From Acidobacteriota bacterium (GTDB taxonomy: Bacteria; Acidobacteriota; Thermoanaerobaculia; Multivoradales; Multivoraceae), in contig JAJCXN010000054.1 of the NCBI GenBank assembly GCA_029263415.1, positions 1-64,000 on the forward strand: a stretch of DNA of 64,000 nucleotides, given 5' to 3'. Positions 1,796-47,326 of this stretch are shown piece after piece; position 1 is the stretch's first letter; each line of letters begins with the position of its first letter. The notes beneath the pieces are model-generated. The model ran no database searches, was not told the DNA's origin, and was given only the letters and a program-made list of their open reading frames with translations. Both the position numbers and the translations under genes were made by a program.

Positions 1796-4090
1796 CTAGC
1801 CGGACCAGGGTGCTCGTTCGGGCGTCAGAGCTTGGTACTGATCGAGGCGACGCTTGGCTGACTCCGCGGATGTGCCCTGTTCACTCAGCTGCTCGATCAC
1901 CTTCTGCTGCCACTCCACGGCCTTCGCGAACTCACCCGATTCGGCGAGGGCCATCGCGACGGTTTCGCCGTGTTCGGGTGTTGGCAGGGCATCGAACAGC
2001 CGCATCGCGAGGTCCAGACCGATCTGGGCATCGCGCACCGCGTCGTCGCGCGATGCAACCAGGATCTGAGTCAACAGGTGCGCCAGAACGGGTTCGCTGG
2101 GGAGGACTTCGAGCGCCTGTTCGAGCGCTTGGCGAGCGTCGCCGTCCCTGCCTGCCAGGGCCAGAGCCATCGCATGGGAGAACCGAACCGCTGAGTTCTC
2201 CGGATCTTGCTGGATCAGCTCCTGGTACTCAGAGGCTGCGTCGCCGAAGCGCTCGAGCCGTCCGAACAGAGTGGCAAGGTTGAATCTTGCCTCGGCGAGT
2301 TCCGGGTCAAGTTCGAGTGCGCGTTGGTAGAGCATTACAGCTTCATTGTCGAGCGGGCTGGCAGTTGCTTCTGCGGTACTCGGTGAGTCCGATCTGGACT
2401 TGATGGCTGAAGCCTGAGCCGATCGTTGAGCCATTTCGTTGGCCAAATAGAGCGCCGCTCGGGCAGCGATCTTCGGTTCGATGTCTGGCGTGACCAGGAG
2501 AGAGCTCAGGCGCTGCCTGCCCGGGGCCGAGTCACCGAGTCTTAGTTGAAGCAGGCCCACTCCCAGCTCAAAGTCATCCCCCCACGATTCGCCGGCGGCT
2601 TGAATTCCACTGAGGAATTGGCTCAACGAGGCGCGTCCTTGAGCACCCCAGCTCTCGACCGGGGCGCCTGGAATTTTGGCTTGAACTGCGATGCGTTCGG
2701 CGATCGTCTCGGCTCTGTGGTAGTGCAGCTCGATCGCATCAGGATCGCGCGCGATGCCGGCAGCGTAGGTGGCGTCCGCACCGTCAAAACGGCCGGCCCG
2801 CCTTTGGGTGCTCGCCAACAACGCGCGACCCTCTGTGAAGTCCGGAGCCAGCGCTAACACTTCTTCGAGGTGCTCCAGAGCGCTAGCGATTCGCGCTGCT
2901 CGGTGCTCCTTGGTGGTGGCAGTTGTTGCGTCGACCAGAAGCTGTGCCACGAAGTAGCGCAGGCCGACGTCGTCGGGTGTCAGTACCACGGCCTGCTGAA
3001 GCAGATCGATGGCTAGAGCGGTTTCGCCGCGCCGCAGCTGCAGGCTAGCCAACGACTTGTGTGCCGCGGCACTGTCGGGCTGGATCTCGAGGGCTCGTTG
3101 GAAGCGCTGGAGGGCCGTGTCGATCTCTCCGGTGGCCAGTGAGATTCGACCCAGGGTTAGCATGGCGCCAGCGCCGTCAGCCTTGCTTTGCACCTCGGCC
3201 ACGATCGGATCGGGGAACCGTACGGTGCTATCACCGCGGTTTTCCAGGTGAAACCGCGCCCGCTCGAGCTGACCCAGTTCGCGGTGCGAAAGACCGAGTG
3301 CATAGTGAATCTGATTGGCGGTGGGCTGAGCGGCGAGGGCCGCTGAAAGGTCCTGCACTGCGCGCTTGTGGTCACCCTGCGCAGCGGCAATGCGTCCGAG
3401 ACCGTTGAGGCCGACTGCTTGAAAGTCTGGGAAGCCTTGCAAGTGTTGGTACTGGAGTTGAGCCTCTTCCAAGCGTTCACCTGCTAGGAGCGATCGCCCC
3501 AGGCGCGCTCGGATTGGATTGACCAGGTTGCCGGGCGCACCCGCCGCAGTGGCCAGTTCGAGTGAGGCTGTGTAGCTCTCGATGGCGCGCTCGGTGTCAC
3601 TGTCCACCTCGTAGAGCGTACCCAGCAGGTAGGGCCAGCGAGGTTCCTGCGGTTCATAGGCCGCGGCGTTCGTCAGGGCAGCGCGAGCTGGCGCGGTGAG
3701 GTCGTAGAGCAGATAGAGCTGGCCGAGCTCACCGAAGGCGGTGCCGAGCCGCAGTGCGCCTGTGCCCTCAGTTGGACTTTGCGCGCCCTGGCTGGAGGCT
3801 GCTGCCTCAAGGGCTGTGCGCTGCTCTTCGAGTTGCGTCCGCACGGCAGGCTCCATCGCATCGAGCGATACTTCAGGGATCGGCACGAGGCCGCTCGGTT
3901 GAGCTGTCGCTGGATTGTGCACTGCGAGTCCTGAGAGGAAAAGCAAAAGTGCGATCGCTGAGGGCAGCCTCAACTGTTGAAGGCTGCGGACGGAGACTCT
4001 GGGCTGTACGGGCATAGGAGGAGACTTTCGCTCTTGGTCTGAAAGGGGCTTTGCGGGCTTAAGGGGTAGCAACGGGTTTGACTGCGGCAC
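1796..4090 (-). CDS. Exported TPR-repeat protein
   Basis: A 764-residue protein (GTG start, preceded by AAGGGA) whose hydrophobic segment at about 40-60 (IALLLFLSGLAVHNPATAQ) is a signal peptide. M26 at 4015 is an alternative start. From about residue 110 to the end it is built of tetratricopeptide repeats, with many LG.....A...Y..AL..NP/P-type units, for example AIESYTASLELA, ALQRFQRALEIQPDSAAAHKSLA and AVMLYQRALELDPELAEARFNLA. TPR arrays mediate protein-protein contacts. It overlaps the upstream FG-GAP gene by 32 bases, so the three genes from 8218 to 1796 form one operon. It probably acts in the periplasm with those proteins. Confidence 0.85.
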   Translation of the reverse strand: MPQSNPLLPLKPAKPLSDQERKSPPMPVQPRVSVRSLQQLRLPSAIALLLFLSGLAVHNPATAQPSGLVPIPEVSLDAMEPAVRTQLEEQRTALEAAASSQGAQSPTEGTGALRLGTAFGELGQLYLLYDLTAPARAALTNAAAYEPQEPRWPYLLGTLYEVDSDTERAIESYTASLELATAAGAPGNLVNPIRARLGRSLLAGERLEEAQLQYQHLQGFPDFQAVGLNGLGRIAAAQGDHKRAVQDLSAALAAQPTANQIHYALGLSHRELGQLERARFHLENRGDSTVRFPDPIVAEVQSKADGAGAMLTLGRISLATGEIDTALQRFQRALEIQPDSAAAHKSLASLQLRRGETALAIDLLQQAVVLTPDDVGLRYFVAQLLVDATTATTKEHRAARIASALEHLEEVLALAPDFTEGRALLASTQRRAGRFDGADATYAAGIARDPDAIELHYHRAETIAERIAVQAKIPGAPVESWGAQGRASLSQFLSGIQAAGESWGDDFELGVGLLQLRLGDSAPGRQRLSSLLVTPDIEPKIAARAALYLANEMAQRSAQASAIKSRSDSPSTAEATASPLDNEAVMLYQRALELDPELAEARFNLATLFGRLERFGDAASEYQELIQQDPENSAVRFSHAMALALAGRDGDARQALEQALEVLPSEPVLAHLLTQILVASRDDAVRDAQIGLDLAMRLFDALPTPEHGETVAMALAESGEFAKAVEWQQKVIEQLSEQGTSAESAKRRLDQYQALTPERAPWSG

Positions 4091-5861
4091 CTGTCCCTTG
4101 GACGATTCGGTGGTAGCGAGCGACTGTGTCGGGTCCGATAGGGATCGCGAAGTTCTCTCGCTTACCGTCGGGCCAGGCTACCGCGAACCGGAGGTGTTGA
4201 GCGGTCTGATCGGTGGTGTTGATCCTGCGCAGGATCCGATGATCGACCGCAGAAGCGTAGCCGCCGTCGTTGTGGACTCGCACGATGCGTGGTGGGCGCT
4301 GTTGTTTGGCCGCTCGAACGGCCGGCGGATCTGCGTCGAACATGACGGTTGCGCCCAGTGCAGGTCGGCCGCCGTGCTTGGCGGCCAGTCGTACGTCCAG
4401 TCCGAGCCACGTTCCTGCTGCCTCGCGCTCCCAGTTGTTGACCAAGACTTGGACCGCGCCGCTGTTGTTGGTGATCACCAGATCAGTGTCGCCGTCGTTG
4501 TCGAGATCTCCTGTGAGCACTGAGCGCGAGACACTCGGGATGCCACCGCTGAGAGCGGGAACAGTGGAAGAGGCGTCGACGTAGCGGCCTCCGTCGTTGC
4601 GAAAGAACTGGTTGGGCTCGCCGAGCGGGTATGGATCCTTGTCCCGGTCGTCACCGGGCTGGAGGGTGACGGCGCCATTGGCCACCACTAGATCAAGATC
4701 GCCGTCGCTATCAAGATCTGTGAAGCGGGTGCCAAAGGCGGTCCGCGGCCAGCTTGGCTGCGCAAGGCCAAACCTGGCGCTTTGATCGGAGTAGAACCCG
4801 CTCTCCTCGCGCACATAGAGGGTGTTGCTTTCACGACGAAAGTGAGTGGCGAATAGATCGAGATCGCCATCACCATCAAAGTCGGCGGCGTCGAGCCCCA
4901 TGCTGGCCTCGGCTTCGCCGTCTTTGTTGAGAGCTGTTCCATAAAGAAGCGCCTCGTCCGAGAAGGTCGGGCCATCCTTGGCCAGCGTACTCAGTAGCAT
5001 CTGGTTCGGATTGAGATCGTTCGCGACGTAGTAGTCGACACTACCGTTGGTGTCGAAGTCAGCGCTCAGTACCCCCATGCCAGCTCCAGCCGGAACGGGC
5101 AGGCGAGCGCTCTGGTTGCGGAACGTCCCAGTGGCCTGATTGATGAACAGGCTGTCGGCCTGTGGTTTAAAGGCGCCCGGGCCGCAGTAGTCCTTCTCGC
5201 CGCGAGCGGTGAGGCATTGCTTAGTGGTGACCAACGAGAAGTTGACGTAATTCGCGACGTAGAGATCGAGCCGATGATCCTGGTCGACGTCGGTGAATGA
5301 CGCGGCCACTGAGAAGCTTGGGTCGTCGACACCCGTGTCTTTGGTCGCTTCAACAAACGTACCGTCCCCTTGGTTGAGCCAAAGGGTATTGCGGCCGAAG
5401 TTGAGAACGTAAAGATCGATGTCGCCATCGTTGTCGACGTCAGCTGCACTTGCGCCGATGCCGTAGCCGGTGCTGCTGATTCCTGAAGTTTCGGTGACGT
5501 CGGTGAAGTGCAAGCCGGCGGCTGCTGGTCGGGCGGGTTCGGCTGCGGCCCGGGCGTGGTGGTCATTGCGGAACAGCCGGTCGCGGAGCGGTTGACCTTC
5601 AGGCCACGCGATCAGCGCGTCACTCAGCTGCCGATCGCCACCCAGCAGGTGACCCTGGACGAGGAACAGGTCGAGATCGCCGTCGTTGTCGTAGTCGAGC
5701 AGTGCGCCGCCAGCTCCGACCGTTTCCGCGTAGTAGAGCCGGCCGGTCATGCCGTTGAAGTGCACGAAGTCGACGCCCGAGGTCTTTGTCACATCGACCA
5801 GCGACGGCGCTGCCATGACGGCACCAGCGCTCACCAGCAATCCAAGCGCAAGAAGTCTCAA
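4059..5861 (-). CDS. FG-GAP/VCBS repeat protein, CRTAC1 (ASPIC/UnbV) type
   Basis: The 600-residue product starts with a signal peptide (MRLLALGLLVSAGAVMAAPS). It carries at least seven calcium-binding FG-GAP/VCBS units with DxDxDGDxD cores, such as LLDYDNDGDLDLFLV, AADVDNDGDIDLYVLNFG, DFDGDGDLDLFA and DLDSDGDLDLVVANG. The C-terminus (about 490-590) resembles an ASPIC/UnbV domain: GATVMF..., VHNDGGYASA and the VAWPDGKRE motif. Such proteins form secreted beta-propellers. Their biochemical role in bacteria is generally unknown. The start codon overlaps the stop of the upstream homologue by four bases (ATGA), which indicates translational coupling. Confidence 0.9.
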   Translation of the reverse strand: MRLLALGLLVSAGAVMAAPSLVDVTKTSGVDFVHFNGMTGRLYYAETVGAGGALLDYDNDGDLDLFLVQGHLLGGDRQLSDALIAWPEGQPLRDRLFRNDHHARAAAEPARPAAAGLHFTDVTETSGISSTGYGIGASAADVDNDGDIDLYVLNFGRNTLWLNQGDGTFVEATKDTGVDDPSFSVAASFTDVDQDHRLDLYVANYVNFSLVTTKQCLTARGEKDYCGPGAFKPQADSLFINQATGTFRNQSARLPVPAGAGMGVLSADFDTNGSVDYYVANDLNPNQMLLSTLAKDGPTFSDEALLYGTALNKDGEAEASMGLDAADFDGDGDLDLFATHFRRESNTLYVREESGFYSDQSARFGLAQPSWPRTAFGTRFTDLDSDGDLDLVVANGAVTLQPGDDRDKDPYPLGEPNQFFRNDGGRYVDASSTVPALSGGIPSVSRSVLTGDLDNDGDTDLVITNNSGAVQVLVNNWEREAAGTWLGLDVRLAAKHGGRPALGATVMFDADPPAVRAAKQQRPPRIVRVHNDGGYASAVDHRILRRINTTDQTAQHLRFAVAWPDGKRENFAIPIGPDTVARYHRIVQGTGAAVKPVATP

Positions 5862-8218
5862 GGGACTGAGCCTGGTGCGTCGTGGTCATGATTGGCAGCT
5901 GCATCCGCGGATGGGGAGCGTCTCAGCATGACGTGCGGGGCAGCCAGGATCCGTTGAGCCTGCGCCTGTCCTTGGTGGAGCAGGTAGATTGAATCGAGTT
6001 CGAGATCGGTGAACTTCTGGCTGGGGCCGCCGGGCCAGTCGACTTCGACGCTGAGGTTCCCCGTGGCTTGGCCAAGGCCAACTTCGAGTTGCAAGCTGCT
6101 GGCCCCGAACGAGCCACCCGTTCCGACAGTGCGGTGCAATGTGCGCTGCAACGTGCGCTGATTGACTATGACGCGGACTCGAGCGCCCACAGCGAATCGA
6201 TTGGTGCTGGTGCCACGGAAGCGCAGAGTGACCCATCGATGCTTGCTTTCGTTTTGCTGGCTCAGGTTTTCGAACAATGCGTTGGCCCCAGGATCTCCCG
6301 GATAGAAGCCGCCAAGCTGGTGGAGTAGGTCCTGGTCGCCGTCATTGTCGAGGTCGCCGAAGGCGGTGCCATGACCCTTCTGGATGTGGGCTAGGCCCGA
6401 GTTCATGGTGATGTCTTTGAATCGGTCGCCTTGGTTGAGGTACGCCTGGTTGGGAAACTGGCTGGCGAGGTTCGGCTCGCCTGTGCCCAAGTAGAGATCG
6501 ATCAGACCATCACCGTTGAGATCGCCGAAGTTCGCTCCCATCGGCATGGCGGGGCGCGTTATTCCAACTTCGCTGCTGACCTCGGTGAAGCTCAGCGTGC
6601 CGTTCTCCATTAGTTGGTTGAGATACATCAATGGTTGGCCGCCCGGTGTCGAGGCTCTGCCGATGCGTGAGGTTAGAGGGAAGTAGGACGCCGCGACGCG
6701 GTCGGCTTGCTGTTGGTAGTCGGCGACGAACAAATCGAGGTCGCCGTCGTTGTCGAAGTCGAAGAACCAGGTGGCGAAGCTTTGCACCGTAGGCTCGGTG
6801 ACTTCCAGGGCTTGAGCTTGATCGCTGAACCTAAGCTTGCCGTCGGTCGCGGTCACATTGAGGTAGAGCCGGTTGATGCCAAAGTTCGAGACATAGAGGT
6901 CTTGATCGCCATCGTTGTCGACATCGCCTGCGGCCACCGCTTTGGCGTAGCGCAGGTTTGCGACCCCGGCGTCCTCTGTGACGTCGACGAACTGACGCAG
7001 GTCGGATCCTTGCACTGCATCGTTGCGGAGCAACTGTGAACGATGTGGAGAAGCGGCGGTGGCTTCGTTGCCGACATACAGATCAAGATCGCCGTCATTG
7101 TCGAAGTCCGCGAAGACCGCGGCTTGGGTGGGCTGCGGAGGGGTCGCGAGGCCAACCGCCGCGGTAACGTCAAGAAAAAGCGGTGGCGCAGCGCTCGATG
7201 ATTCCCGGTTTGGGGCACTGGTATTGCGTAGCAACGAGTTGCTGATACGCCCGTGAGACAGGAGCCAGGCGCCGCGCGTAACGAACAGGTCCACGCGGCC
7301 GTCGTTGTCGTAATCAGCGCTCATCAGATTGAGTCCACCCGCGATCTCGCCGAGTCCCCACTGGTCGGTGACGTCCTGAAAGCCGGAACTGCCCCGGTTG
7401 CGAAATGCTGTGAGTCCGCCGCACGGATCCCAAGTGCTGGTCACTAGATCCAAAAGGCCGTCACCATCGAGATCCTCGACCACAGCGCCTCCAGCGAGAT
7501 CGGTGATGTCGACGCCGAGAGCGGGTGCGATGTTGCGCCAGACTCGGGGGTCCGTTGCCCGCGCTTTGGGAGTTAGATCGAGCCGCACTTGGTCAGGCAC
7601 GATCGACGGTTGGTTGGCCAACGACGCTGCAAGGTTAGCCAGCCAGGCCGCCGTCGGGTTACGCGGTTGACGGCGCAGGATGGCGAGGAAGTGTTGGGCG
7701 GCCTCTAGGGTCGCGGTTGGATCTCGGTGGATCGCATCGTTTTGTAATGGCAAGATGCAGGCTGCTGCAGAAGGCGAGTGTGGAGCAGGGTTCGCGCCGC
7801 CACCGGCGTCTAGTTCTCCATTGGTATGGCCAAGGCAGTTGGCGATTTCCCCAAGCCTGAGGTTGGCTAAGCCTGCGAGCCAAGCGGCCTGTACTTGATT
7901 GGCGGCGGACGATTGAGGATTGGCCGGGTCCAGTAGCAGAGCGGTCTTGGCGATGGCGTCTTGGAAGCGACCTTGCTGAAGGTCGATGCGGGCACCGCGC
8001 AGCAGGTCTTCCGGTGCAGCGTCGGTCGGGTTTCCAATGGTGGCCGCTGAACCGAAGTAGGGATTCGAACTGGCGGACAACTCCTCGCAAAGGGCTTGGC
8101 GAGAAGGCGGCTGCGGTGTTCGCGACTGAGCGCCTGCGAGTTGCTGGCCGGTCACAGTCAGCAGGGCGAGGAGCGAAGCAACTAGCGCGGCTCGCAATGG
8201 TGGAATAGCAGGTCTCAT
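5858..8218 (-). CDS. FG-GAP/VCBS repeat protein, CRTAC1 type with helical N-terminal domain
   Basis: First gene of the three-gene operon, 786 residues. It has a signal peptide (about 1-30, ending AGAQSRTPQ) and an alanine-rich helical region (about 40-215, TPR-like: ILRRQPRNPTAAWLANLA). Repeated FG-GAP units follow (VVEDLDGDGLLDLVTS, MSADYDNDGRVDLFVTRG, VFADFDNDGDLDLYVGNE, DVDNDGDQDLYVSNFG). A C-terminal ASPIC/UnbV-like segment contains VDWPGGPSQKFTDL. It is a paralogue of the next gene with an added helical module. Putative function: secreted calcium-stabilised propeller for binding; ligand unknown. Confidence 0.88.
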   Translation of the reverse strand: MRPAIPPLRAALVASLLALLTVTGQQLAGAQSRTPQPPSRQALCEELSASSNPYFGSAATIGNPTDAAPEDLLRGARIDLQQGRFQDAIAKTALLLDPANPQSSAANQVQAAWLAGLANLRLGEIANCLGHTNGELDAGGGANPAPHSPSAAACILPLQNDAIHRDPTATLEAAQHFLAILRRQPRNPTAAWLANLAASLANQPSIVPDQVRLDLTPKARATDPRVWRNIAPALGVDITDLAGGAVVEDLDGDGLLDLVTSTWDPCGGLTAFRNRGSSGFQDVTDQWGLGEIAGGLNLMSADYDNDGRVDLFVTRGAWLLSHGRISNSLLRNTSAPNRESSSAAPPLFLDVTAAVGLATPPQPTQAAVFADFDNDGDLDLYVGNEATAASPHRSQLLRNDAVQGSDLRQFVDVTEDAGVANLRYAKAVAAGDVDNDGDQDLYVSNFGINRLYLNVTATDGKLRFSDQAQALEVTEPTVQSFATWFFDFDNDGDLDLFVADYQQQADRVAASYFPLTSRIGRASTPGGQPLMYLNQLMENGTLSFTEVSSEVGITRPAMPMGANFGDLNGDGLIDLYLGTGEPNLASQFPNQAYLNQGDRFKDITMNSGLAHIQKGHGTAFGDLDNDGDQDLLHQLGGFYPGDPGANALFENLSQQNESKHRWVTLRFRGTSTNRFAVGARVRVIVNQRTLQRTLHRTVGTGGSFGASSLQLEVGLGQATGNLSVEVDWPGGPSQKFTDLELDSIYLLHQGQAQAQRILAAPHVMLRRSPSADAAANHDHDAPGSVP

Positions 8219-8266
8219 GGTGGGGAGTCAGCAGCGGTCAAGAAGGAGCCGCCATGGTTGATTCTA

Positions 8267-8306
8267 GTTGGAGGGGCCAGTGATGAGTATCACTGGCCCC
8301 TCCAAC
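8267..8306. repeat. 18-bp perfect inverted repeat (hairpin)
   Basis: GTTGGAGGGGCCAGTGAT (8267-8284) is followed by a four-base loop and its exact complement (8289-8306). There is no T-run on either side, so it is not a standard terminator. It lies 49 bases upstream of the FG-GAP operon start. Confidence 0.85.
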
Positions 8307-8465
8307 ATCACTTGCTTGCTCCAAGCGCCTCTGGCGCGTCGCAAGGTGAGCTGATCCTTGATGCGCCGATGCAGAGCAAAGCCTCTGTGGTTTTGGTTGA
8401 GTGGTTGGCGCGAAGGGTTTAGGCGATTCGGGCGCTTGAGTGCTGCAGTGCAACGGGGGGCCATA

Positions 8466-35389: not shown

Positions 35390-36313
35390 GTGTTGAATAG
35401 CAGACCCACCGCGCGAACCGAGACTCGAGTTGGAGGCTCCGCGAGTTGTTGCCTGCTAGTGGGTTTGACGCTTGTGTGCACGCTCGCCACTGTTCAACAG
35501 TTGAGTGCTCAGGACTTGCCGCCCGCTCGACCCTCCAGAGCGCCAGCAAAGCCAACGCCAACGCCGGTCGCCAAGTTGCCGGCGACCTTGATGCTTGTAG
35601 TCGACGGTGCCGCTCATGTCGTAATGGATGGCCAAGACCTCGGCGAGTTTGCGGCCGACGAGATGCGCGGTGTACCTGTTGGCCTAGGGGAACACTTCGT
35701 GATTGCGACCAGTACAGAGGAACCCTCGGTGAAACTTCGGGAGGTCGTGACCATCGAAGCACCTGGGCAGAAAGTGGTGAGTTTCGAACTCGCGGGTAAG
35801 GTGCGGTCGTGGCAAGAGAAAGAACGAGCTAAACGAGCGCAAGAACAAACCAAACGAGCGCAAGAGCAAACCAAACGAGCGCAAGAACAAGCGAAACGAG
35901 CGCGGGTCTTGGAAATGGAAAGTCGTTTCCGGCCCATCGGCGGAGGGGTGTTGCAAGACACCAAGAAGCCGCTGCAGTGGACGGCGCGCGACAACGGCAC
36001 CGATATCGATTGGAACAATGCGTCTGCCTACTGCGGTGGTTTGCGACTGGGAGGCAACTCCGATTGGCGGCTGGCCACAATATATGAGCTGAGCGAGCTC
36101 TATCTCAAGGATGCTCCTGGCGATCCTTGTGGCTCGGTCAAATGCAAGATCTACCCCGGCTTTGACCTGACCAGCTTCTGGCTTTGGTCTGGTGACCGGA
36201 ATGGTTCCTCCACGGCGTGGCTCCTGGACTTCGGCGGCGGTCGTCGCAACTCCTTCAACGTTGGCAATTTCCGCCTCTTACGGGCGTTGTGTGTTCGTCG
36301 TTCCGGAGGGTGA
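35390..36313 (+). CDS. Secreted PEGA-like/DUF1566 (C-type-lectin-fold) protein, candidate DGR target A
   Basis: From the GTG at 35390 (AGGAGGG upstream), the 307-residue product has a signal peptide (SCCLLVGLTLVCTLATVQQLSAQ), a Pro-rich linker and a PEGA-like domain (LMLVVDGAAHVVMDGQDLGEF, then VGLGEHFVIAT). A short coiled coil encoded by a 21-bp tandem repeat follows (KRAQEQT units). A C-terminal DUF1566/Lcl domain carries WTARDNGTDIDWNNASAYCGGL, DWRLATIYELSELY and LWSGDRNGSS, ending RALCVRRSGG. It is almost identical to the paralogue at 39729 except in the VR-like segment 36173-36280. C-type-lectin folds are common DGR targets, so this may be a diversified surface binding protein. Confidence 0.78.
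   Translation: MLNSRPTARTETRVGGSASCCLLVGLTLVCTLATVQQLSAQDLPPARPSRAPAKPTPTPVAKLPATLMLVVDGAAHVVMDGQDLGEFAADEMRGVPVGLGEHFVIATSTEEPSVKLREVVTIEAPGQKVVSFELAGKVRSWQEKERAKRAQEQTKRAQEQTKRAQEQAKRARVLEMESRFRPIGGGVLQDTKKPLQWTARDNGTDIDWNNASAYCGGLRLGGNSDWRLATIYELSELYLKDAPGDPCGSVKCKIYPGFDLTSFWLWSGDRNGSSTAWLLDFGGGRRNSFNVGNFRLLRALCVRRSGG
35831..35904 (+). repeat. 21-bp tandem repeat inside target A
   Basis: Three and a half units starting at 35831, 35852, 35873 and 35894 (cores AAACGAGCGCAAGA) encode KRAQEQT heptads. The paralogue at 39729 lacks all units at the same place, so the array expanded or was lost after the duplication. Confidence 0.85.
36173..36280 (+). other. Hypervariable segment of target A (VR-like)
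   Basis: The two paralogues are about 94% identical at DNA level in the 240 bases before this segment and identical in the roughly 30 bases after it. Inside it, the codons from 36213 to 36280 differ at almost every position, mostly at codon positions 1 and 2, while blocks such as CGCAACTCC and the WSGDRNGSS-coding stretch are unchanged. This is the pattern of adenine-directed DGR mutagenesis; the matching template repeat was not found. Confidence 0.55.
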
Positions 36314-36586
36314 GCCGGCCCTTTGACTCTTTGGTCCTTTGACCCTTTTGCGCTGTTGAACTAACCAGCTTTTGTTCGAGCGCCGGGAAGCTCACACGGC
36401 CTTGCTAGCCCGAACCTGCCTAGTGCTTCACGCTCTCGGCTTGCCGTGGTGATGCGGAGCAAGCTCTGGTTCTGCCGAGGCTAGGTCGAGATATCCGGGC
36501 TGACCAGCAATCTCAATAGGGTTGGGCAGCGAAGCCGCATGGGGAGGGGAGGACCGTGCTCAGACCAACGCCCGACAACTCCGAAT

Positions 36587-37447
36587 TTATCTTGCCCTGA
36601 AGTGAAACGTTCCATCTTCGAGTTCTTTCCAAGCCCCGGCAAGCAAGTAGTTGGAACCACGGTGCCTGATCTCCATGGCGTAGAACATGGTTTCGCCGGT
36701 CCATGTCGGTTTGCCTTCAGCGAATAGCTCTAGGGCCTGCTTTCTGTTGGGTCTTAGGGTCCACTGAGGGTAGCCGTAGAACGCGGAGTTCACGGTTTTG
36801 TAGTCGCCCTGTTGGTCGAGGAAGGTGGCGGAGATCCAGCGAATCTGGATGTCTTGCCCAGACTTGTTGAGTACCGTGAGCTGGCCGCTTTGCAACTGCG
36901 AGGCCAGTCGCTGAATGTTGGCCTGGGCGTTTTCCATGCCCTTGGTGGCACCATCTTGGCTTTTGCTCAACTCTGAAACACTGTTTGCCAGTGCCTTGGC
37001 CTCTGTTCTTGCTTTTCCTAGTTGCAACCACAGAAAGGTCATTCCTGCTGCCATTGCGGCGACCACTAGCCAGGCTAATAGGGCCGAACGGGGGATCTCG
37101 GCGTCTGCAGTTGTTTCAACTGGCTCTGGCTGTGTGAGGTGGCGGGCGTTCGCTGCAGCCATGCGACCGGCAGTGGTTGACCCGGCTCCGGGTGAGGTGT
37201 TGTAGGAGGGCTGGGCAGAAGGCAGGTCGGGACTGCCTTGGTCACCCGTAGCACCTGGTGCCAACACTTCCGCAGCCTCGCGAAGAGCCTCCAACTTTTC
37301 CTGGAAGGCCTTCTTCAATTTCGGCAGAGGCGCGTTTGTCAGGCGCAGGTGGTAGTCCGAATAGAGTTCTTGGTAGCTCTGGCGCACCATCTCGGCGCTA
37401 GCACCAGCTGATACTCCGAGGACTTGGGCTGCTTGTTCCGGCGTCAT
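36587..37447 (-). CDS. Membrane-anchored J-like domain protein
   Basis: The 286-residue protein starts with a helical J-like domain (MTPEQAAQVLGVSAGASAEMVRQSYQELYSDYHLRLTNAP). The HPD motif is absent. A disordered linker, one transmembrane segment (LAWLVVAAMAAGMTFLWLQLG, about 130-150) and a coiled coil (KALANSVSELSKSQDGATKGMENAQANIQRLASQL) follow, then a C-terminal beta-rich domain (YPQWTLRPNRKQALELFAEGKPTWTG). J-like proteins recruit Hsp70; the Hsp70-like gene lies 4 kb away, so a partnership is plausible. Without HPD, stimulation of ATPase activity is doubtful. It converges on target A and diverges from the next gene. Confidence 0.6.
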   Translation of the reverse strand: MTPEQAAQVLGVSAGASAEMVRQSYQELYSDYHLRLTNAPLPKLKKAFQEKLEALREAAEVLAPGATGDQGSPDLPSAQPSYNTSPGAGSTTAGRMAAANARHLTQPEPVETTADAEIPRSALLAWLVVAAMAAGMTFLWLQLGKARTEAKALANSVSELSKSQDGATKGMENAQANIQRLASQLQSGQLTVLNKSGQDIQIRWISATFLDQQGDYKTVNSAFYGYPQWTLRPNRKQALELFAEGKPTWTGETMFYAMEIRHRGSNYLLAGAWKELEDGTFHFRAR

Positions 37448-37755
37448 GAGAGTCTCTCTAAGGCCTAGTTGTTCAAATCTTGCATGCCGCTACGAGCGAT
37501 GAGGCGAAGTCTCTTGCCGACCGCGCGCTGAGCCAAGCGCCGAAAGTAGCTATCTCGATAGACATGCCGAACCGGCGAGTTTGAAGGCCGGACTGGATCA
37601 GAAAACGGACATCGCAATGTATCGCATCGAACCCGGTACATGCATGGGCGCAACGTGCTGAGCCGGCCCTGTCGTCTTGGCTCTGGGGGCCTCCTCCGAG
37701 TATGCTCAAAGACTCACATCTCAAACTCACCTCCTCACCTCTTGAAGAGACAGTC
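37448..37755. other. Divergent intergenic region (J-like gene / DUF1566-like gene)
   Basis: No gene and no sharp promoter was identified. The start of the plus-strand gene is set at the ATG 37756, which begins a signal peptide; an upstream ATG at 37702 would add 18 residues without a hydrophobic core. Confidence 0.4.
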
Positions 37756-39474
37756 ATGAAGAATCTGCCAGGGGCATGCGTTGCTCTTCAACGTCTGCGA
37801 AGGGGCTTTGCGGTCGCCAGCCTATTGTGGGCTACATTACTGGCGAGCATGGTGGTGAACGCGGAGCCACTGCTCGCCCAGGATGTGCCGCCACCGAGAG
37901 CGGTTGCAACGCGTCCTCGCCCGGTGGCTAAACCCGTGCAAGCGACATTGGTGATTAGTGCAACGGCTGCTTGTAACGTCATCGTCGACGGCATCGACCT
38001 CGGTTCACTAAGTCCAGGGGCGGTGCGCTCGCAAAAGGTCGGCTTGGGCGAGCACATCATCATCTCCAACTGTGCAGGCCAGGTTCGGCCCAGTGTGTTC
38101 ACTGCAGACGAACCAAAACAGTACGCAGTGCTCATTCGGCCCGAGACTTCGGCAGTCGGTGGCGGCGGTAGCAGTGGCAGCGGTGGCAGGTCGCTCGTTG
38201 TCCGTGCCGATCGAGCTGGCACCGTGCGGGTCAACGGTTCTGAACTAGGTCCCGTGCTCGCCGGTGGCAGCATCTTCGCTGCCGCTCAAGTGGGCGAGAA
38301 CCTGGTTGAGTTGCAAAGCACCGAGGTCCCGGCGGCAAAGACCACCTCTACCGTGCGCCTTACCGAGGAAGAGTCTCAGAAGGTAGTTCAACTTTCGGTG
38401 GCGCCCTACGAGCGCTACTGGCGTCGCTTCGAGGCAATCTCAACGGAGACTTTTCTCGATCGTGAAACGGGTCTGGTGTGGAACCGCCCACAAACCAACG
38501 CCAGCGAACGTGTGCAAGCGCACTTCAGCTGCATTCAACTGGAAACAGATGGCCGCAAGGTCTGGAGGTTGCCCACAAAGTGGGAATTGAGAAAACTGCG
38601 CGGCGGCAGCATTCTTTCCGGTGACCAATGGCACAGCCCTGCGACCGGACCGGCCGGTGCCAACGAACCGTGGTGGGTGTTGGATTTTGATGATGCCGGC
38701 AATTTCTTAAGCATCGCGGCTGACTCTTCTAACCAGTCTGCACAGTTGCTGTACGCCTCGGATCGAGGCACCTATTCAAAAGTGCTGCGCCCGTACCTGT
38801 GCCTTGCGGTCGATGGTTATGAGCGTGACCGCGGTGCAGCGTCTAGCCGGACCCAATCCAGCGAGGCCCAATCGCCTGCCGAAATCCTTGTACGCTGGCT
38901 AGATCAGAGGTCGGTCAAGTCCACATCGGTGATCGGTGATAGCAGCAACGGTTGCTCTTCCGAAGGTACGGATCAGTGGAGCGTCACCCAACAAGGCCGG
39001 TGTGGTCTTGTTGTTAAGGAAACCCACACCTCCAGCACGGAATGTTTTGGCAGTTGGCAGGCGGGCACACGAGCGGAGATGCCCGTGCGCAGGCGAGATG
39101 TCACCTCGACATTTGAGTATGAGATCTCTCTCGCCGGAATCGAAGATGTGTCACTCGGGTTCACCAACGTCGCTTTGGCAGATCTCAGCCACCGCGATAA
39201 AGACAGGACGGTCACCCAGACCTACAGCTTTGGCCCGATGCTTCAGTTTGGCACCAAGATGCCAGTTCACTCTCAGATCGACCGAACATGGGAATTCAAG
39301 CCCAAGGACGGCGCAACGCCACCGCCTAGCAGCACCAGCGAGCAAGGAGAGCAATCTTGGCCTGTCGATATGATTTACGTTTCCAACGACGCTGGTTTTG
39401 CAGCCGGCGTCATGAAGGCATTCATCGATGGTGCTGAGACTTGCAGGGGCGAGGCCGGAGCAATAGTCCCTTAA
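37756..39474 (+). CDS. Secreted protein with PEGA-like repeats, DUF1566-like domain and unique C-terminus
   Basis: The 572-residue product has a signal peptide (GFAVASLLWATLLASMVVNAEPLLAQ) and two PEGA-like beta domains (VQATLVISATAACNVIVDGIDLGSL; SLVVRADRAGTVRVNGSELGPV) split by a Gly/Ser linker. A DUF1566-like domain (ETFLDRETGLVWNRPQTNASERVQAHFSC, KVWRLPTKWELRKLRGG) with an altered core comes next. The C-terminal region of about 190 residues (from SVKSTSVIGDSSNGC) is not recognised and has several cysteines. It shares the N-terminal architecture of the two DUF1566 paralogues on either side but not their variable segment. Presumably surface-associated. Confidence 0.7.
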   Translation: MKNLPGACVALQRLRRGFAVASLLWATLLASMVVNAEPLLAQDVPPPRAVATRPRPVAKPVQATLVISATAACNVIVDGIDLGSLSPGAVRSQKVGLGEHIIISNCAGQVRPSVFTADEPKQYAVLIRPETSAVGGGGSSGSGGRSLVVRADRAGTVRVNGSELGPVLAGGSIFAAAQVGENLVELQSTEVPAAKTTSTVRLTEEESQKVVQLSVAPYERYWRRFEAISTETFLDRETGLVWNRPQTNASERVQAHFSCIQLETDGRKVWRLPTKWELRKLRGGSILSGDQWHSPATGPAGANEPWWVLDFDDAGNFLSIAADSSNQSAQLLYASDRGTYSKVLRPYLCLAVDGYERDRGAASSRTQSSEAQSPAEILVRWLDQRSVKSTSVIGDSSNGCSSEGTDQWSVTQQGRCGLVVKETHTSSTECFGSWQAGTRAEMPVRRRDVTSTFEYEISLAGIEDVSLGFTNVALADLSHRDKDRTVTQTYSFGPMLQFGTKMPVHSQIDRTWEFKPKDGATPPPSSTSEQGEQSWPVDMIYVSNDAGFAAGVMKAFIDGAETCRGEAGAIVP

Positions 39475-39728
39475 GCTTGCTGCAGGCTCGCTTTCCAGGT
39501 TGGCAACCCGAAGGAGGCAGCAACCTGGAAGTTCTGGCGATGGCACTCTACTAGGGAGTACCCTAGCCGTCCGCCGGCTCTATAATCCTTTGCTACGAAA
39601 CTGTGTCTAGTGGGGAACGGGGCTGAGGGTGAACACCGGTCCGAGAGGCTCGGAAGCAGGCTCAGGTGGGTTCCTCCCGGCGGGCACCAAGTGCTGCATC
39701 AAGCCAATCAATCACGAGAGAGCAATTT

Positions 39729-40559
39729 GTGTTGAACATCAAAACTGCAGGGCGGGCACATCGTCGGACTGGCGGATCTGCGAGTCGCTGGCTGCTAGTG
39801 AGTTTGACGTTTGCGTTTACCTTCGGCACCGTTCACCAGTTGAGTGCTCAGGAATTGCCTCCAGCGCGCCCGCAGGAACGCCGAGCCACTCCCGCTCCGG
39901 CGAAACCAAGACCGGCTGCCAAACCGCCGGCGACTCTTTTGCTGGTGGTAGATTCGGCGGCTCGTGTGGTGGTTGATGGCGAGGACCTGGGGGAACTTGC
40001 GGCCAACGAGATGCGCCGGATCCCCACAGGCCTTGGAGAACATTTTGTGGTTGCTACCAGCACCGTGGAATCTTCGGTGATGGTGCGTGAGGTGGTGACC
40101 ATCGAAGAACCTGGGCAGAAAGTGGTGAGTTTTGAACTGGCAGACCAGGTGCGGTCGTGGCAACGGCTGAACAGGTTCCGGCCCATCGGCGGAGGGGTGT
40201 TGCAAGACACCAAGGGGCCGCTGCAGTGGACGGCGCGCGACAACGGCACCAGTATCTCTTGGAGCAATGCGTCTGCCTATTGCGGTGGTTTGCGACTGGG
40301 AGGCAGCTCCGATTGGCGGCTGGCCACACTAGATGAGCTGAGCGAGCTCTATCTCAAGGATGCTCCTGGCGATCCTTGTGGCTCGACCACTTGCAAGATC
40401 TACCCCGGCTTTGACCTGACCAACTACTTGGCTTGGTCTGGTGACCGGAATGGTTCCTCCTTGGCGTGGTTCTTCGCTTTCCACCAGGGTGTTCGCAACT
40501 CCGGCCCTGGCGGTCCCCTCAACGGGCGGGCGTTGTGTGTTCGTCGTTCCGGAGGGTGA
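39729..40559 (+). CDS. Secreted PEGA-like/DUF1566 protein, candidate DGR target B
   Basis: A 276-residue paralogue of target A. It has a GTG start at 39729 in the same position relative to the signal peptide (SRWLLVSLTFAFTFGTVHQLSAQ), the PEGA-like domain (LLLVVDSAARVVVDGEDLGEL, GLGEHFVVAT), then the DUF1566 domain (GGGVLQDTKGPLQWTARDNGTSISWSNASAYCGG, DWRLATLDELSELY) ending RALCVRRSGG. It lacks the heptad array of A. The stretch after the WSGDRNGSS motif differs completely from A. About 55 bp of downstream non-coding DNA is also shared with A. It converges with the Avd-family gene; the gap is about 80 bases. Confidence 0.78.
   Translation: MLNIKTAGRAHRRTGGSASRWLLVSLTFAFTFGTVHQLSAQELPPARPQERRATPAPAKPRPAAKPPATLLLVVDSAARVVVDGEDLGELAANEMRRIPTGLGEHFVVATSTVESSVMVREVVTIEEPGQKVVSFELADQVRSWQRLNRFRPIGGGVLQDTKGPLQWTARDNGTSISWSNASAYCGGLRLGGSSDWRLATLDELSELYLKDAPGDPCGSTTCKIYPGFDLTNYLAWSGDRNGSSLAWFFAFHQGVRNSGPGGPLNGRALCVRRSGG
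40422..40526 (+). other. Hypervariable segment of target B (VR-like)
   Basis: Counterpart of 36173-36280 in target A. Codon by codon the two differ at ACG/TTG, CTC/TTC, CTG/TTC, GAC/GCT, GGC/CAC, GGC/CAG, CGT/GTT and then over a run of about ten codons; B is one codon shorter. Flanking sequence is near-identical, so substitutions are concentrated here. Confidence 0.55.
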
Positions 40560-40642
40560 GTCGGCCCTTTGACTCTTTGGTCCTTTGACCCTTTTCCGCT
40601 GTTGAATTGGCCAGCTATTGTTAGCGCGAGGGGCTGCTTGCC

Positions 40643-41029
40643 TCACAAGCTAATCGGAATCTTCCTTGGCTTGTGGGCTTCGCCTTGCTTTTGTGCTGCG
40701 CAGCCAGCCTTCGTTCTGCCGGCAGAGATCCACGACGCTGTTCGCAAGCCGCTCGTTACCGCAAGGCTCTGGAAGGCCTTGGCCTCTTGCGCCAACCTGA
40801 TCAGAATCTTGAGTTCCTCGAGTTCAACGCGCAACTCTTCCAACTCTTCGAGGCGATCTGCCTTGGCGTTGGCGCGGACGATGCGGCGCAGCACAGCCAT
40901 TGCTGCTTGCCGCAGCTGGGCGCCTAAGGCGTACTTGTTGTACCGAGAGAAGCCTCGGACAAAACGTTCGAGGTCCAAACAAAGACCAAAAGCGGCGCGG
41001 TAGATGGGGAGATGTTCGTAGCGGCCCAA
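40643..41029 (-). CDS. avd: Avd-family protein (DGR accessory variability determinant)
   Basis: The 128-residue product from a TTG start reads GRYEHLPIYRAAFGLCLDLERFVRGFSRYNKYALGAQLRQAAMAVLRRIVRANAKADRLEELEELRVELEELKILIRLAQEAKAFQS. It matches the helical bundle Avd/bAvd family: LPIYRAAF at the start, the FxRYxKYALGxxLR motif and the basic helix LRRIVRAN. Avd binds the DGR reverse transcriptase and RNA and is needed for mutagenic homing. The last 30 residues (SGLRTASWISAGRTKAGC) diverge from typical Avd. It lies between target B and the Hsp70-like operon; the reverse transcriptase usually next to it is missing. Confidence 0.85.
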   Translation of the reverse strand: MGRYEHLPIYRAAFGLCLDLERFVRGFSRYNKYALGAQLRQAAMAVLRRIVRANAKADRLEELEELRVELEELKILIRLAQEAKAFQSLAVTSGLRTASWISAGRTKAGCAAQKQGEAHKPRKIPISL

Positions 41030-41105: not shown

Positions 41106-42701
41106 TCAAAGCTGGTTGATCACCGTGTTCCGCACCAAGGCGCGCTGCGTTCCAAGGTGAGCGAGCCCATCTTGCCCTTCTCGGCCAAATACCTGCGACA
41201 GCTCGATTCCAGTTTGCGCATCGTACGCTCCCACAGCCACGGTGCCATCTTCCAGGTTCTCGATGCTCACCTCAATGGGGTAGTTGACTTGCGGTGAAGG
41301 CAGCGGTCCGACCACCATCTGGCCTAGGGAGATCACGTCGTCTTGCTCGGCTCTGTTGCTTCCGCTGCGACCGGTGCTACTTCCGCCAGGGCCCCGGCTA
41401 CTTCCGCTTCTGCCTTGGTTTCTTAGGTCGCGATACTGAACCAACTCGAGCACCATGCGCTGTTGATTGGGCCGGGTGGTGAAGTAGGTTTTGCGTGCCT
41501 TGGCGGGCAGCGGCATGTTCTTCTTGATCAGGGTATCTAGCACTACACGCCCGGTGGAGGGGTCCATGGTGCGCACTCCCACACAGTAGCCGGTCACTCC
41601 GCGAAACTCTGGAGGCAACTCGAGCGCCTGTGCGTGGCCAGCCAACTGGGCCGCGTGAATGGCCGCACCGTAGGCTACCGCTCTTGTCGGCTGGTGAAAC
41701 AGGATCTTAGTATCAGGAAAGGCAGCATCTATGTAGACCTTGACCGCCGGCACCATGGACGAGCCACCGACCAAAAGCAAAGTGTCGATGTCGTCGTTCA
41801 CCAGGCCCGCTTCTAAGACGACCTCGCGCGTGACCGCGATGGTGCGTTCGATCAATTCATCGATCCTGCGGTCAAAGTCGGCCCGGAGAATCAGCACTTC
41901 TACGGCTTCGCCGGCTATGACGACTGTTCGGCTAACCGTTGTTTGGCCGGGAGAACTCAGTTCGATCTTTAGTTCTTCTGAGATTCGTCGCAGTTCGAGC
42001 AACGAGCGGGCATTGAGATCTATAGGTTCCCCCAGAGCCTCCTCGAACTGTTCTAGAACCATTGCGCCGATCGCTTCGTCGAACTCCTTGCCACCAACAT
42101 CAGTGAGCCCGCCTTTGGCAAGCACGAAGACCCCTCTTGCGTCTAGTGACAGCACGGTTGCGTCGAAGGTGCCGCCGCCGAAGTCATACACCACTAGCAC
42201 TTGGTCGTGACTTACTTGGGTGACGCCGTAGTGCAGGGCGGCCGCCACCGGTTCTTCTACCAGGCCAAGCACCTCGATGTCAGCCAGGGCTGCCGCAGCC
42301 AATACCGAGCGGCGTTGTGGATCGCTGAAGTGGGCGGGCACGGTGATCACCGCGTTCTTCACCGGCGTTGAACAGCAACTTTCGGCATCAAAACGTAGTT
42401 TCTTGAGCACCAGAGCGGCCATGGTTTCTGGGTACCAAGGGGTGCCGTCTGCATCGAAATGAATCGGCTCCGTGCCGCCAAACTGACGTTTGAAGAAACG
42501 AATCGCACTGAGGTCGGGCTGCTGCTGCGCGAGCACTTCGACGCTGCGGCCAACAAAGGCGCTGCGGTGCGCTATATGCACCACCGAAGGGGTATGCACT
42601 ACGCTCTCTTCGGCGTAATCGGGGATGAGCGTCGGCGAACCATCAAGTGAAATGCGCGCGATCAGCGAATAGGTGGTGCCGAGGTCAACGCCGACGTTCA
42701 C
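41106..42701 (-). CDS. Hsp70/DnaK-like ATPase
   Basis: The 531-residue protein has a complete actin-fold ATPase domain: GVDLGTTYSLIA (phosphate 1), VVYDFGGGTFDATVLSLD (phosphate 2), EEPVAAALHYG, KGGLTDVGGKEFDEAI and LLLVGGSSMVPAVK (adenosine). The segment after about 390 is short and partly disordered (RNQGRSGSSRGPGGSSTGR), so it is shorter than DnaK and lacks a full lid. It would be an Hsp70-type chaperone relative with a specialised client. It overlaps the upstream coiled-coil gene by four bases (ATGA) and shares an operon with it. The J-like protein at 36587 is a candidate partner. Confidence 0.85.
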   Translation of the reverse strand: MNVGVDLGTTYSLIARISLDGSPTLIPDYAEESVVHTPSVVHIAHRSAFVGRSVEVLAQQQPDLSAIRFFKRQFGGTEPIHFDADGTPWYPETMAALVLKKLRFDAESCCSTPVKNAVITVPAHFSDPQRRSVLAAAALADIEVLGLVEEPVAAALHYGVTQVSHDQVLVVYDFGGGTFDATVLSLDARGVFVLAKGGLTDVGGKEFDEAIGAMVLEQFEEALGEPIDLNARSLLELRRISEELKIELSSPGQTTVSRTVVIAGEAVEVLILRADFDRRIDELIERTIAVTREVVLEAGLVNDDIDTLLLVGGSSMVPAVKVYIDAAFPDTKILFHQPTRAVAYGAAIHAAQLAGHAQALELPPEFRGVTGYCVGVRTMDPSTGRVVLDTLIKKNMPLPAKARKTYFTTRPNQQRMVLELVQYRDLRNQGRSGSSRGPGGSSTGRSGSNRAEQDDVISLGQMVVGPLPSPQVNYPIEVSIENLEDGTVAVGAYDAQTGIELSQVFGREGQDGLAHLGTQRALVRNTVINQL

Positions 42702-44764: not shown

Positions 44765-47326
44765 CTAGCCCGCGTAGGCCGACGCCCGAGCCGCTGATGC
44801 TGCGGCTTGAGAGGCGTTGCCCGCGGCATCAGAGGCAGAATAGGAGGCCTCGGAAGCTGCCTGCTGGGCGGTCTGGGCGTGTTGCTGGATCTCGCCGATC
44901 AGGTAGTCAGCCTCTTGGCGCAGCTCGGTGATTACTTGCACCAGGTCGTCCGACACTTGGCGCAGGTCGGCGATCTGATCGTGTAACGATTGTGACTCTG
45001 CACGGAGCGCCTCGGTTTCGCTGCGCAGCTGTTGCACCGTCGCGAGTTCGCTCTCTGCGTTGCTGCGTGCTTCTTCGGTCTGCTGCAATGCCGCTTGAGC
45101 ATCTGTACGAACAGCAAGGATGTCTTCTTGGGTTTGTTCGGCTTCCTGATAGACCTGCTGGGTTTGGCCCAACACCGTGTTGGTTTGTTGCTCTAAGGCC
45201 GCAGCCTGCTGGGCAGCCTGAGCGGCCTCAACTTCGAAAGCGCGGGCAGCTTCAGCAGCGCTCAGCGACTCGCTCTCGTAGCCTCGGGCCGCTGCCGAAG
45301 AGGCGCTGGCTTCAGCCTCCATGCCTAATGCCTGTCCTGCAGCATCACGGGCTTCACCCTCAGCAGCCTGGGCCTGGCCGGCAGCGGTGCCAGCTTCGCC
45401 TTCCGAGGTTTCAGCGCCACCAGCCGCAGTCTGAGCCTGGCCCTCCGCAGCCTGTGCTTCGCTCGAGGAACTCTGTGCTTCTCCCTCGGCCGTCTGTGCG
45501 GAAGATTCTGAGGCTTGAGCCTCAGCTTCGGCACTGCGCGCTTGTTGGGAGGATGCTTCTGCATCGGCTTCGGAAGCGTGAGCACCAGAAGCAGCTGATT
45601 GCGCCTCGCCTTGAGCAGATTGAGCCTCCCCAGCCGCGGTGCGCGCCTCGCCTTCAGCAGACTGTGCCTCGCCAGCGGCCGTGCGTGCTTGTCCTTCGGC
45701 GGCCTGCGCTTCGCCGGACGCGGTGCGTGCTTCGCCTTCAGCAGACTGTGCCTCGCCAGCGGCCGTGCGTGCTTGTCCTTCGGCGGACTGCGCTTCGCCA
45801 GACGCGGTGCGCGCTTCACCCTCAGCTGATTGGGCCTCGCCGGCAGCGGTGCGTGCTTGTCCTTCGGCGGCCTGCGCCTCGCCGGACGCGGTGCGTGCTT
45901 CGCCTTCAGCTGACTGTGCCTCGCCAGCGGCCGTGCGTGCTTGTCCTTCGGCGGACTGCGCCTCGCCGGACGCTGTGCGCGCTTCACCCTCAGCTGATTG
46001 GGCCTCGCCGGCAGCGGTCTGAGACTCTCCAGCCGCAGTACGAGCTTCGCCTTCGGCTGACTGAGCTTCACCAGCTGCGGTCGTCGCTTCACCTGCACCA
46101 GACTGAGCTTCGCTAGCAGCGCTGCCCGCATCGTCGGCCGAACTTTGCGCCTGTTCGCCGGCGGCACTTGCTTGTTCTTGGGACGCCTGTGCATCGCTGG
46201 AGGCTTCGTCGGCATCGGCGGAACTGTCGGTCGCTTCGCCGGCAGATCGTTCAGCGTCGTCGGCACTGACGCGCGCACGTTCAGCTGCCTCGGCGGCAGA
46301 ATCACTGTCCGTCGAGGCACTCGATGCTGCGTCGGCGGCGCTTTGACGATCGACTTCGGAGTCACTCATTGGACTATCCTCCAAAATGTTGCGGATCTCC
46401 GCAGCTTCGGGGTTCTCCCGATCTAGGCGAATCTGGTCTTTGATCGCCTGCTCTGACAATGCATCAAACTCTCGGGTAGTCCCGGCCATCGACTGCCCGC
46501 CGTGTTCCACAAACTCTCGAGCCTGTTCCTCGCTCAACCCGTGGTAGCGGCCTTCCCCGATTTCTGAGATTAGCCATTGGCTATTGCGGTCAATTTGGTC
46601 GCTCGCGCTGCCCAGCGAGTGTGCCGCCTCAGCGTCATCAGAGAGACTGTCGCTTGTTTCTTCGTAAGAGCGCTGCTGGCCTTCGAAGTCGCGGCGTAGT
46701 TGGTCACCGTCGTGGTGTTCAGGTTGCACGCCCAAGCTGCCAGTAAGCCCGAAGCCACCCTTCGCCTTGAAGCCGTCCTCTCCCGCGGTGACCTGGCCAC
46801 CTGCCCCGACCCCACCTCCCGCTGAACCGCTGAGTCCATAGGAGTCGCCCTCTTGGTTTGGTGAGGTGCCGTAGCCGTGTTTGTAGGTGGCACTGCCGAG
46901 GTCGAGGCCGCCACCCATGTTTAGCCCGCCACCGTCGAGTTTGGCCTTTGCTTCCCCGCCAAGGAATTGCCACAGGCTCTCGGACCGCTGGTACGAGCCG
47001 TCGGAGTCGATCTCGAAGTCGATGGTGCGCGACTCAAAGGCATGTGCGTCGCCACTTCCCAAGCTGACACCCGGCCCCGAGGTGGACGTCTCACCGGTTT
47101 CCAAGTCAACCTTGCCCCCGCCGAGGTGCACGCCGGGCCCGCTAGCATCTGCTTCCAGAAGCTGTCTCTCCTTCAGCTGGACACGAATGTCCCCGTCAGA
47201 GCCTTGGGTCACATTCAAGCGGCGGCTCGAAAACGCTTCCCACCCGTCTTCCTTCTTGAGGCCCATTTCTCTCAAGATGTTGAGAAGGGCCTGCTTCTGG
47301 CGCGGCTTTAGTAGGGAGTAATCCAA
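44765..47326 (-). CDS. Giant Ala/Glu/Gly-rich heptad-repeat protein
   Basis: The 853-residue product begins with a unique helical head (MDYSLLKPRQKQALLNILREMGLKKEDGWEAF) and a glycine-rich region (LDGGGLNMGGGLDLGSATYKHG, 120-220). It then turns into a long array of seven-residue units of the form A-x-G-E-A-x-[ST], arranged in 28-residue superunits (about residues 415-580). A conventional coiled coil follows (ALEQQTNTVLGQTQQVYQEAEQTQED...). No signal peptide or membrane segment is obvious. Its position upstream of the membrane coiled-coil and Hsp70-like genes, on the same strand, suggests a shared assembly. Function unknown. Confidence 0.75.
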   Translation of the reverse strand: MDYSLLKPRQKQALLNILREMGLKKEDGWEAFSSRRLNVTQGSDGDIRVQLKERQLLEADASGPGVHLGGGKVDLETGETSTSGPGVSLGSGDAHAFESRTIDFEIDSDGSYQRSESLWQFLGGEAKAKLDGGGLNMGGGLDLGSATYKHGYGTSPNQEGDSYGLSGSAGGGVGAGGQVTAGEDGFKAKGGFGLTGSLGVQPEHHDGDQLRRDFEGQQRSYEETSDSLSDDAEAAHSLGSASDQIDRNSQWLISEIGEGRYHGLSEEQAREFVEHGGQSMAGTTREFDALSEQAIKDQIRLDRENPEAAEIRNILEDSPMSDSEVDRQSAADAASSASTDSDSAAEAAERARVSADDAERSAGEATDSSADADEASSDAQASQEQASAAGEQAQSSADDAGSAASEAQSGAGEATTAAGEAQSAEGEARTAAGESQTAAGEAQSAEGEARTASGEAQSAEGQARTAAGEAQSAEGEARTASGEAQAAEGQARTAAGEAQSAEGEARTASGEAQSAEGQARTAAGEAQSAEGEARTASGEAQAAEGQARTAAGEAQSAEGEARTAAGEAQSAQGEAQSAASGAHASEADAEASSQQARSAEAEAQASESSAQTAEGEAQSSSSEAQAAEGQAQTAAGGAETSEGEAGTAAGQAQAAEGEARDAAGQALGMEAEASASSAAARGYESESLSAAEAARAFEVEAAQAAQQAAALEQQTNTVLGQTQQVYQEAEQTQEDILAVRTDAQAALQQTEEARSNAESELATVQQLRSETEALRAESQSLHDQIADLRQVSDDLVQVITELRQEADYLIGEIQQHAQTAQQAASEASYSASDAAGNASQAAASAARASAYAG
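45600..46080 (-). repeat. Nested 21-bp/84-bp coding repeat array
   Basis: Heptads such as AGEAQSA, EGEARTA, SGEAQSA and EGQARTA repeat with 21-bp periodicity. Four of them form an 84-bp superunit repeated about four times between 45620 and 46000, alternating GEAQS and GEAQA. The array is part of the gene 44765-47326 and keeps frame throughout. Confidence 0.85.

What the first reader, a model, noticed from the sequence alone, without database searches (positions are those of the whole stretch)
35390..41029. Two near-identical DUF1566 paralogues with a hypervariable C-terminal segment beside an Avd gene: a retroelement-diversified receptor system without its reverse transcriptase
Targets A (35390-36313) and B (39729-40559) share almost identical DUF1566 domains and about 55 bp of downstream non-coding DNA. 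They diverge sharply at 36173-36280 / 40422-40526, where changes fall mostly on codon positions 1 and 2 and almost all alter the amino acid. An Avd-family gene (40643-41029) lies 84 bases from B. Avd is known as a DGR accessory protein and C-type-lectin-fold proteins are common DGR targets. No RT and no template repeat are in the window. A GACCGGAATGG-coding block containing adenines is unchanged in both copies, which weakens the case slightly. Avd acting with an RT elsewhere in trans, or a decayed DGR, would both fit.
Basis: partly seen in the sequence, partly recalled or inferred. Interest (0 to 1): 0.9.

Follow-up and report, generated by a model that had tools for sequence, protein, structure and literature searches.

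The report
Relic of a protein-diversifying retroelement (DGR)
Two neighbouring lectin-like genes in this bacterium carry the scar of a retroelement that once rewrote their binding faces, but its reverse transcriptase and template are missing from the assembled genome and its helper gene is broken, so this is most likely a fossil of a known kind of system.

Summary
A and B encode proteins, probably secreted, ending in a DUF1566/Lcl_C (C-type-lectin-fold) domain. Between them that domain has 28 changed codons, 27 of them amino-acid-changing, with base changes at codon positions 1/2/3 of 19/23/6. The N-terminal halves diverge normally (42 synonymous, 49 non-synonymous codons). The adjacent gene is the DGR subtype of Avd, but its C-terminus lies in another frame, so it is frameshifted. 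The assembly (99.2% complete) has no DGR-type reverse transcriptase and no template repeat; RT searches of the same kind find DGRs in relatives. The closest Avd relatives, in a viral contig (L109) and a genome of the same phylum (G168), lie in complete DGRs with Lcl_C targets. The G168 template lines up with window A without gaps, and A/B differences concentrate on its Asn (AAC) codons (Fisher p about 0.005-0.015). Verdict: two former DGR targets plus a broken avd, a degenerate DGR locus. Fossil DGR loci are already described. Unresolved: adenine involvement in the core is low, and no population data were available.

The parts
35390..36313 (+). Target A: signal-peptide-like start, PEGA-like N-terminal half, KRAQEQ repeat linker, C-terminal Lcl_C/DUF1566 domain
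   Evidence: ORF, PF07603 E 9e-13; signal peptide and PEGA-like call are by inspection only
36200..36313 (+). Variable-repeat-like tail of A (NGSSTAWLLDFGGGRRNSFNVGNFRLLRALCVRRSGG), collinear with the G168 template
36002..36145 (+). Upstream stretch of A that also differs from B almost only by replacement changes
39729..40559 (+). Target B: paralogue of A without the repeat linker
   Evidence: PF07603 E 4e-11; 87% DNA identity to A over the Lcl_C part and downstream flank
40449..40559 (+). Variable-repeat-like tail of B (NGSSLAWFFAFHQGVRNSGPGGPLNGRALCVRRSGG), one codon shorter than in A
36314..36366 (+). Non-coding flank of A shared with B (5 differences in the first 52 bases, 13 in the next 35)
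40560..40612 (+). Non-coding flank of B shared with A
40643..41029 (-). avd, DGR subtype, frameshifted: homology ends at residue 89 (40763); the open frame runs on without homology
   Evidence: NF033474 41 bits against TIGR02436 27.5; 51% identity to L109 and G168 Avd over 89 residues
40650..40757 (-). Displaced C-terminal part of avd in another frame (NERLANSVVDLCRQNEGWLRSTK...)
37702..39474 (+). Third paralogue between A and B, with a weak partial Lcl_C match; not part of the hypervariable pair
   Evidence: PF07603 E 2e-6; its N-terminal part matches A at 38%

Best explanation
The locus is a degenerate (fossil) diversity-generating retroelement locus. An ancestral DGR (RT, Avd and template RNA) copied a template rich in AAC/AAT codons into the 3' end of DUF1566/Lcl_C genes, randomising template adenines and so rewriting the ligand-binding face of a secreted C-type-lectin-fold protein. 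One target was duplicated, or its domain was copied by gene conversion, giving A and B. RT and template were later lost, and avd was left facing B and frameshifted. A and B remain as two intact, now probably fixed, binding variants. Shown: paralogy, replacement-biased divergence, a frameshifted DGR-type avd, no RT or template in the assembly, homology to complete Lcl_C-targeting DGRs. Inferred: adenine-directed retrohoming as the cause, the order of loss, fixation, secretion and the ligand-binding role.
For: 27 of 28 changed codons alter the amino acid, mostly at codon positions 1 and 2, while the N-terminal halves diverge normally. Variable positions fall on template-Asn positions of the complete G168 DGR, same length between GSS and RAL, Fisher p about 0.005-0.015 by gap placement; 11 of 12 codons of A at those sites end in C or T. 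avd is of the DGR type and its relatives L109 and G168 are complete DGRs with Lcl_C targets. It is the only bAvd match in the genome. It is frameshifted. No DGR RT or template in the assembly, with DGR RTs found in relatives as positive controls.
Against: Only 13 of 33 core differences involve an adenine, against 59-72% in three control pairs of variable repeats. Third-position changes, a one-codon indel and unchanged adenines in GACCGGAATGG. Replacement changes extend about 200 bp upstream of what the G168 template covers. avd is inverted relative to the usual order. Lcl_C homologues fetched from the same class have no DGR nearby. The frameshift could be an assembly error.
Confidence: 0.75

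Rival explanations
1. Active DGR in trans or in a gap: RT and template exist in the cell but are missing from the 60-contig assembly (gap, plasmid or phage), and A and B are still diversified.
For: The genome is a draft at 99.2% completeness. Trans-acting DGRs with incomplete target loci are described (PMC10907252). Both targets keep intact reading frames.
Against: No template-like sequence anywhere in the assembly, no DGR RT by three queries, and the only avd is frameshifted.
Confidence: 0.12
2. No DGR: a duplicated lectin gene, homogenised by gene conversion, has diverged under strong diversifying selection on its binding face; the Avd gene is a chance neighbour.
For: Low adenine involvement in the core, third-position changes and a codon indel; replacement changes also outside the segment the G168 template covers; class relatives with Lcl_C lack a DGR in the fetched regions.
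Against: 27 replacement codons against 1 silent is extreme for selection alone. Variable positions match template-Asn positions of a homologous DGR. The genome's single bAvd match ends 84 bp from B, and its closest relatives sit beside Lcl_C targets.
Confidence: 0.13

Closest known systems
Complete DGR of genome G168, same phylum (L143)
   Same: Avd 51% identical over 89 residues; Lcl_C targets with the GSS.A...F..G...S......RAL.VR tail; same length between GSS and RAL as A
   Different: Has an IGNLTSQ RT and a template; three targets, two of them fused to protein kinases; avd intact and co-oriented
DGR of viral contig L109 and relatives L112, L115, L116, L117, L118
   Same: Lcl_C target, same Avd subtype (51% over 89 residues)
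   Different: Complete, with 93-100% of TR/VR differences at template adenines
Degenerate or fossil DGR loci (Thiohalocapsa PB-PSB1, PMC10907252; Nanoarchaeota, PMC4372165)
   Same: Target genes with a history of diversification and missing or pseudogenised machinery
   Different: There, other complete DGRs exist in the same genome or the adenine pattern is preserved; here neither holds
Bordetella phage BPP-1 DGR (Mtd, bAvd, Brt); from PMC6642488 and general knowledge
   Same: C-type-lectin-fold target with a 3' variable segment, and an Avd protein
   Different: Active and complete; the target is a phage tail protein

Membership tests
Diversity-generating retroelement (functional, complete) | DGR-type reverse transcriptase ([IVL]GxxxSQ) | tested here: not met
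   Only group II intron type RTs in the assembly
Diversity-generating retroelement (functional, complete) | Template repeat matching the variable repeat except at adenines | tested here: not met
   Only A and B match
Diversity-generating retroelement (functional, complete) | Accessory protein Avd, intact | tested here: not met
   DGR-type avd present but frameshifted
Diversity-generating retroelement (functional, complete) | Ongoing variation of the segment in the population | not testable with these tools
   No reads or other strains available
Former DGR target (degenerate DGR locus) | Target with C-type-lectin-fold domain and variable 3' end | tested here: met
   PF07603 and fold search; replacement-only tail differences
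Former DGR target (degenerate DGR locus) | Variable positions coincide with template Asn codons of a homologous DGR | tested here: met
   Fisher p about 0.005-0.015 by gap placement
Former DGR target (degenerate DGR locus) | Differences between copies trace to template adenines | tested here: inconclusive
   No template; adenine involvement 13/33 in the core and 11/15 upstream, controls 59-72%
Generic four-helix bundle (23S rRNA IVP) protein, as the identity of the Avd-like gene | Scores better with TIGR02436/PF05635 than with the DGR Avd models | tested here: not met
   NF033474 41 against TIGR02436 27.5 bits; bAvd 38.6 against 23S_rRNA_IVP 29 bits; all except TIGR02436 are under their curated cut-offs. 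The generic control L054 shows the reverse, 116 against 39.6

The most novel reading that the evidence does not exclude
A and B are still being diversified without a resident DGR RT, by an enzyme supplied in trans (a passing phage DGR or a resident group II intron RT), so that orphan targets live off foreign machinery.
Probability: 0.04. Interest if true: 0.8.

Novelty: new member of a known kind. Interest (0 to 1): 0.35.

Why it matters
It is a snapshot of how a DGR dies: targets are kept intact while the mutator is lost and its accessory gene breaks. The bacterium's relatives in the same order carry complete DGRs with a different kind of target (FGE-like by inspection), so the locus bears on what lectin targets are kept for once diversification stops. 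The concept of degenerate or fossil DGR loci is already published (PMC4372165, PMC10907252).

Tried and rejected
RT in trans from the same assembly: all three RTs are group II intron type. Template elsewhere in the assembly: none. Generic four-helix bundle protein: rejected by profile comparison with controls. DGR next to Lcl_C homologues of the same class: none in the fetched regions. Protein searches with A1 or A2 in genome contigs and viral contigs found no relative; Lcl_C in phages gave nothing and in plasmids only weak partial matches. Exact VR-flank DNA in viral contigs: none. Window Avd against plasmids: none; against phages: weak matches, the annotated one (Burkholderia phage Magia) in a DGR. 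The fold model is only moderate (pLDDT 67), so no residue-level surface mapping is claimed.

Full report
Observation. A (35390-36313) and B (39729-40559) encode proteins with a C-terminal Lcl_C/DUF1566 domain. From 35927 into the downstream non-coding DNA they match at 87%, and upstream at 74%. In the Lcl_C part 28 codons differ, 27 non-synonymously, with base changes 19/23/6 over codon positions 1/2/3 and 18 codons hit more than once. The N-terminal halves behave normally: 42 synonymous and 49 non-synonymous codons, 34/24/69. With 48 changes placed at random, about 9 codons would be synonymous; one or none has P about 0.0006, and six or fewer third-position changes P about 0.0003.

Machinery in the genome. 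RVT_1 finds three reverse transcriptases, all with the QGG...SP motif of group II introns. Two DGR RTs used as queries find only group II type matches here, while they find DGR RTs in relatives. A 481-bp query around the variable segment finds only A and B. The bAvd family has one match in the genome, the gene beside B. As positive controls, most other bAvd hits in the same order lie beside DGR RTs, and five of these loci plus a second DGR of G049 gave TR/VR pairs with mismatches mostly or only at template adenines. Their targets look FGE-like by inspection.

The avd gene. It scores better with the DGR Avd model (41 bits) than with the generic four-helix bundle model (27.5 bits), although below the curated cut-off of the former (80 bits). 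Intact DGR Avds do the same, two of them also under that cut-off, while a generic protein from the same taxonomic family (G002, L054) does the opposite. Homology to the L109 and G168 Avds is 51% over 89 residues and stops abruptly there. The missing end (NERLANSVVDLCRQNEGWLRSTK) lies in another frame at 40757-40650 and matches intact Avd ends better than all but 0-4 of 2000 shuffles. The gene is therefore frameshifted, unless this is an assembly error. It also faces B instead of following it.

Homologous complete systems. A viral contig (L109), found with a DNA pattern for the Avd start, has an Lcl_C target, this Avd subtype, a template and an IGNLTSQ RT. Related contigs show the same arrangement with 93-100% of TR/VR differences at template adenines. 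In the same phylum, G168 has a complete DGR with three Lcl_C targets. Its template reads SGSSDARNFNFNNGNANSNNRSNSNNNRALPVRSRR. Window A reads NGSSTAWLLDFGGGRRNSFNVGNFRLLRALCVRR: the same length between GSS and RAL. For gap placements in B that keep the most identities (8), A/B differences fall on template-Asn positions in 10-11 of 11-12 cases and on other positions in 3-4 of 10-11 (Fisher p 0.005-0.012; other late placements up to 0.015; early, less likely placements are weaker). Of the 12 codons of A at template-Asn sites, 11 end in C or T, against 50% over the gene.

What does not fit. Under adenine mutagenesis most A/B differences should involve an A in one copy: 59-72% in three control VR pairs. 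The window core gives 39% (13/33) and its 5' part 73% (11/15). Third-position changes, a one-codon indel and unchanged adenines in GACCGGAATGG also depart from a clean pattern. Later mutation and selection after loss of the machinery would explain this (inference); so would ordinary diversifying selection, which is kept as a rival. The replacement changes upstream of the segment covered by the G168 template stay unexplained unless the ancestral template was longer.

Relatives. Lcl_C homologues in the same class (32-41% identity) have no Avd or DGR RT in the regions fetched, by tblastn with positive controls. The window's combination was thus not found in its close relatives, and horizontal arrival of the DGR is possible but untested.

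Known or new. DUF1566 is a common DGR target domain (PMC4159848, PMC6642488). Fossil or degenerate DGR loci are described in Nanoarchaeota (PMC4372165) and in Thiohalocapsa (PMC10907252). The locus is a new member of that known kind. It is not a functional DGR on the evidence of the assembly: RT, template and intact Avd were tested and not met. That lowers the claim that it is a DGR, not the claim that it descends from one.

Noticed in passing
L143 (G168:C18) 3331-4851 and 6668-8416: Two serine/threonine kinases whose C-terminal Lcl_C domains carry variable repeats of a complete DGR: candidate diversified kinase sensors.
   Followed up: partly
window 36002-36145 / 40251-40394: Replacement-biased, adenine-rich differences (11 of 15 over 35927-36151) upstream of the usual VR extent, as if the ancestral template had been about 300 bp long.
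   Followed up: partly
window 36587-37447 (-) and 41106-42701 (-): A weak DnaJ-like gene and an Hsp70-like gene flank the target cluster on the opposite strand.
   Followed up: no
window 44765-47326 (-): Long low-complexity protein with many EAQSAEGEARTA-type repeats.
   Followed up: no
L001 (G000:C29:344-1807) and L003 (G000:C44): Group II intron type RTs; the copy on C44 is fragmentary, with an unrelated start fused in frame.
   Followed up: partly
L068 (G010:C1, around 2416000): A third avd in G010 lies beside an RT match that is broken into two short pieces, possibly another decaying DGR in the same taxonomic family.
   Followed up: no
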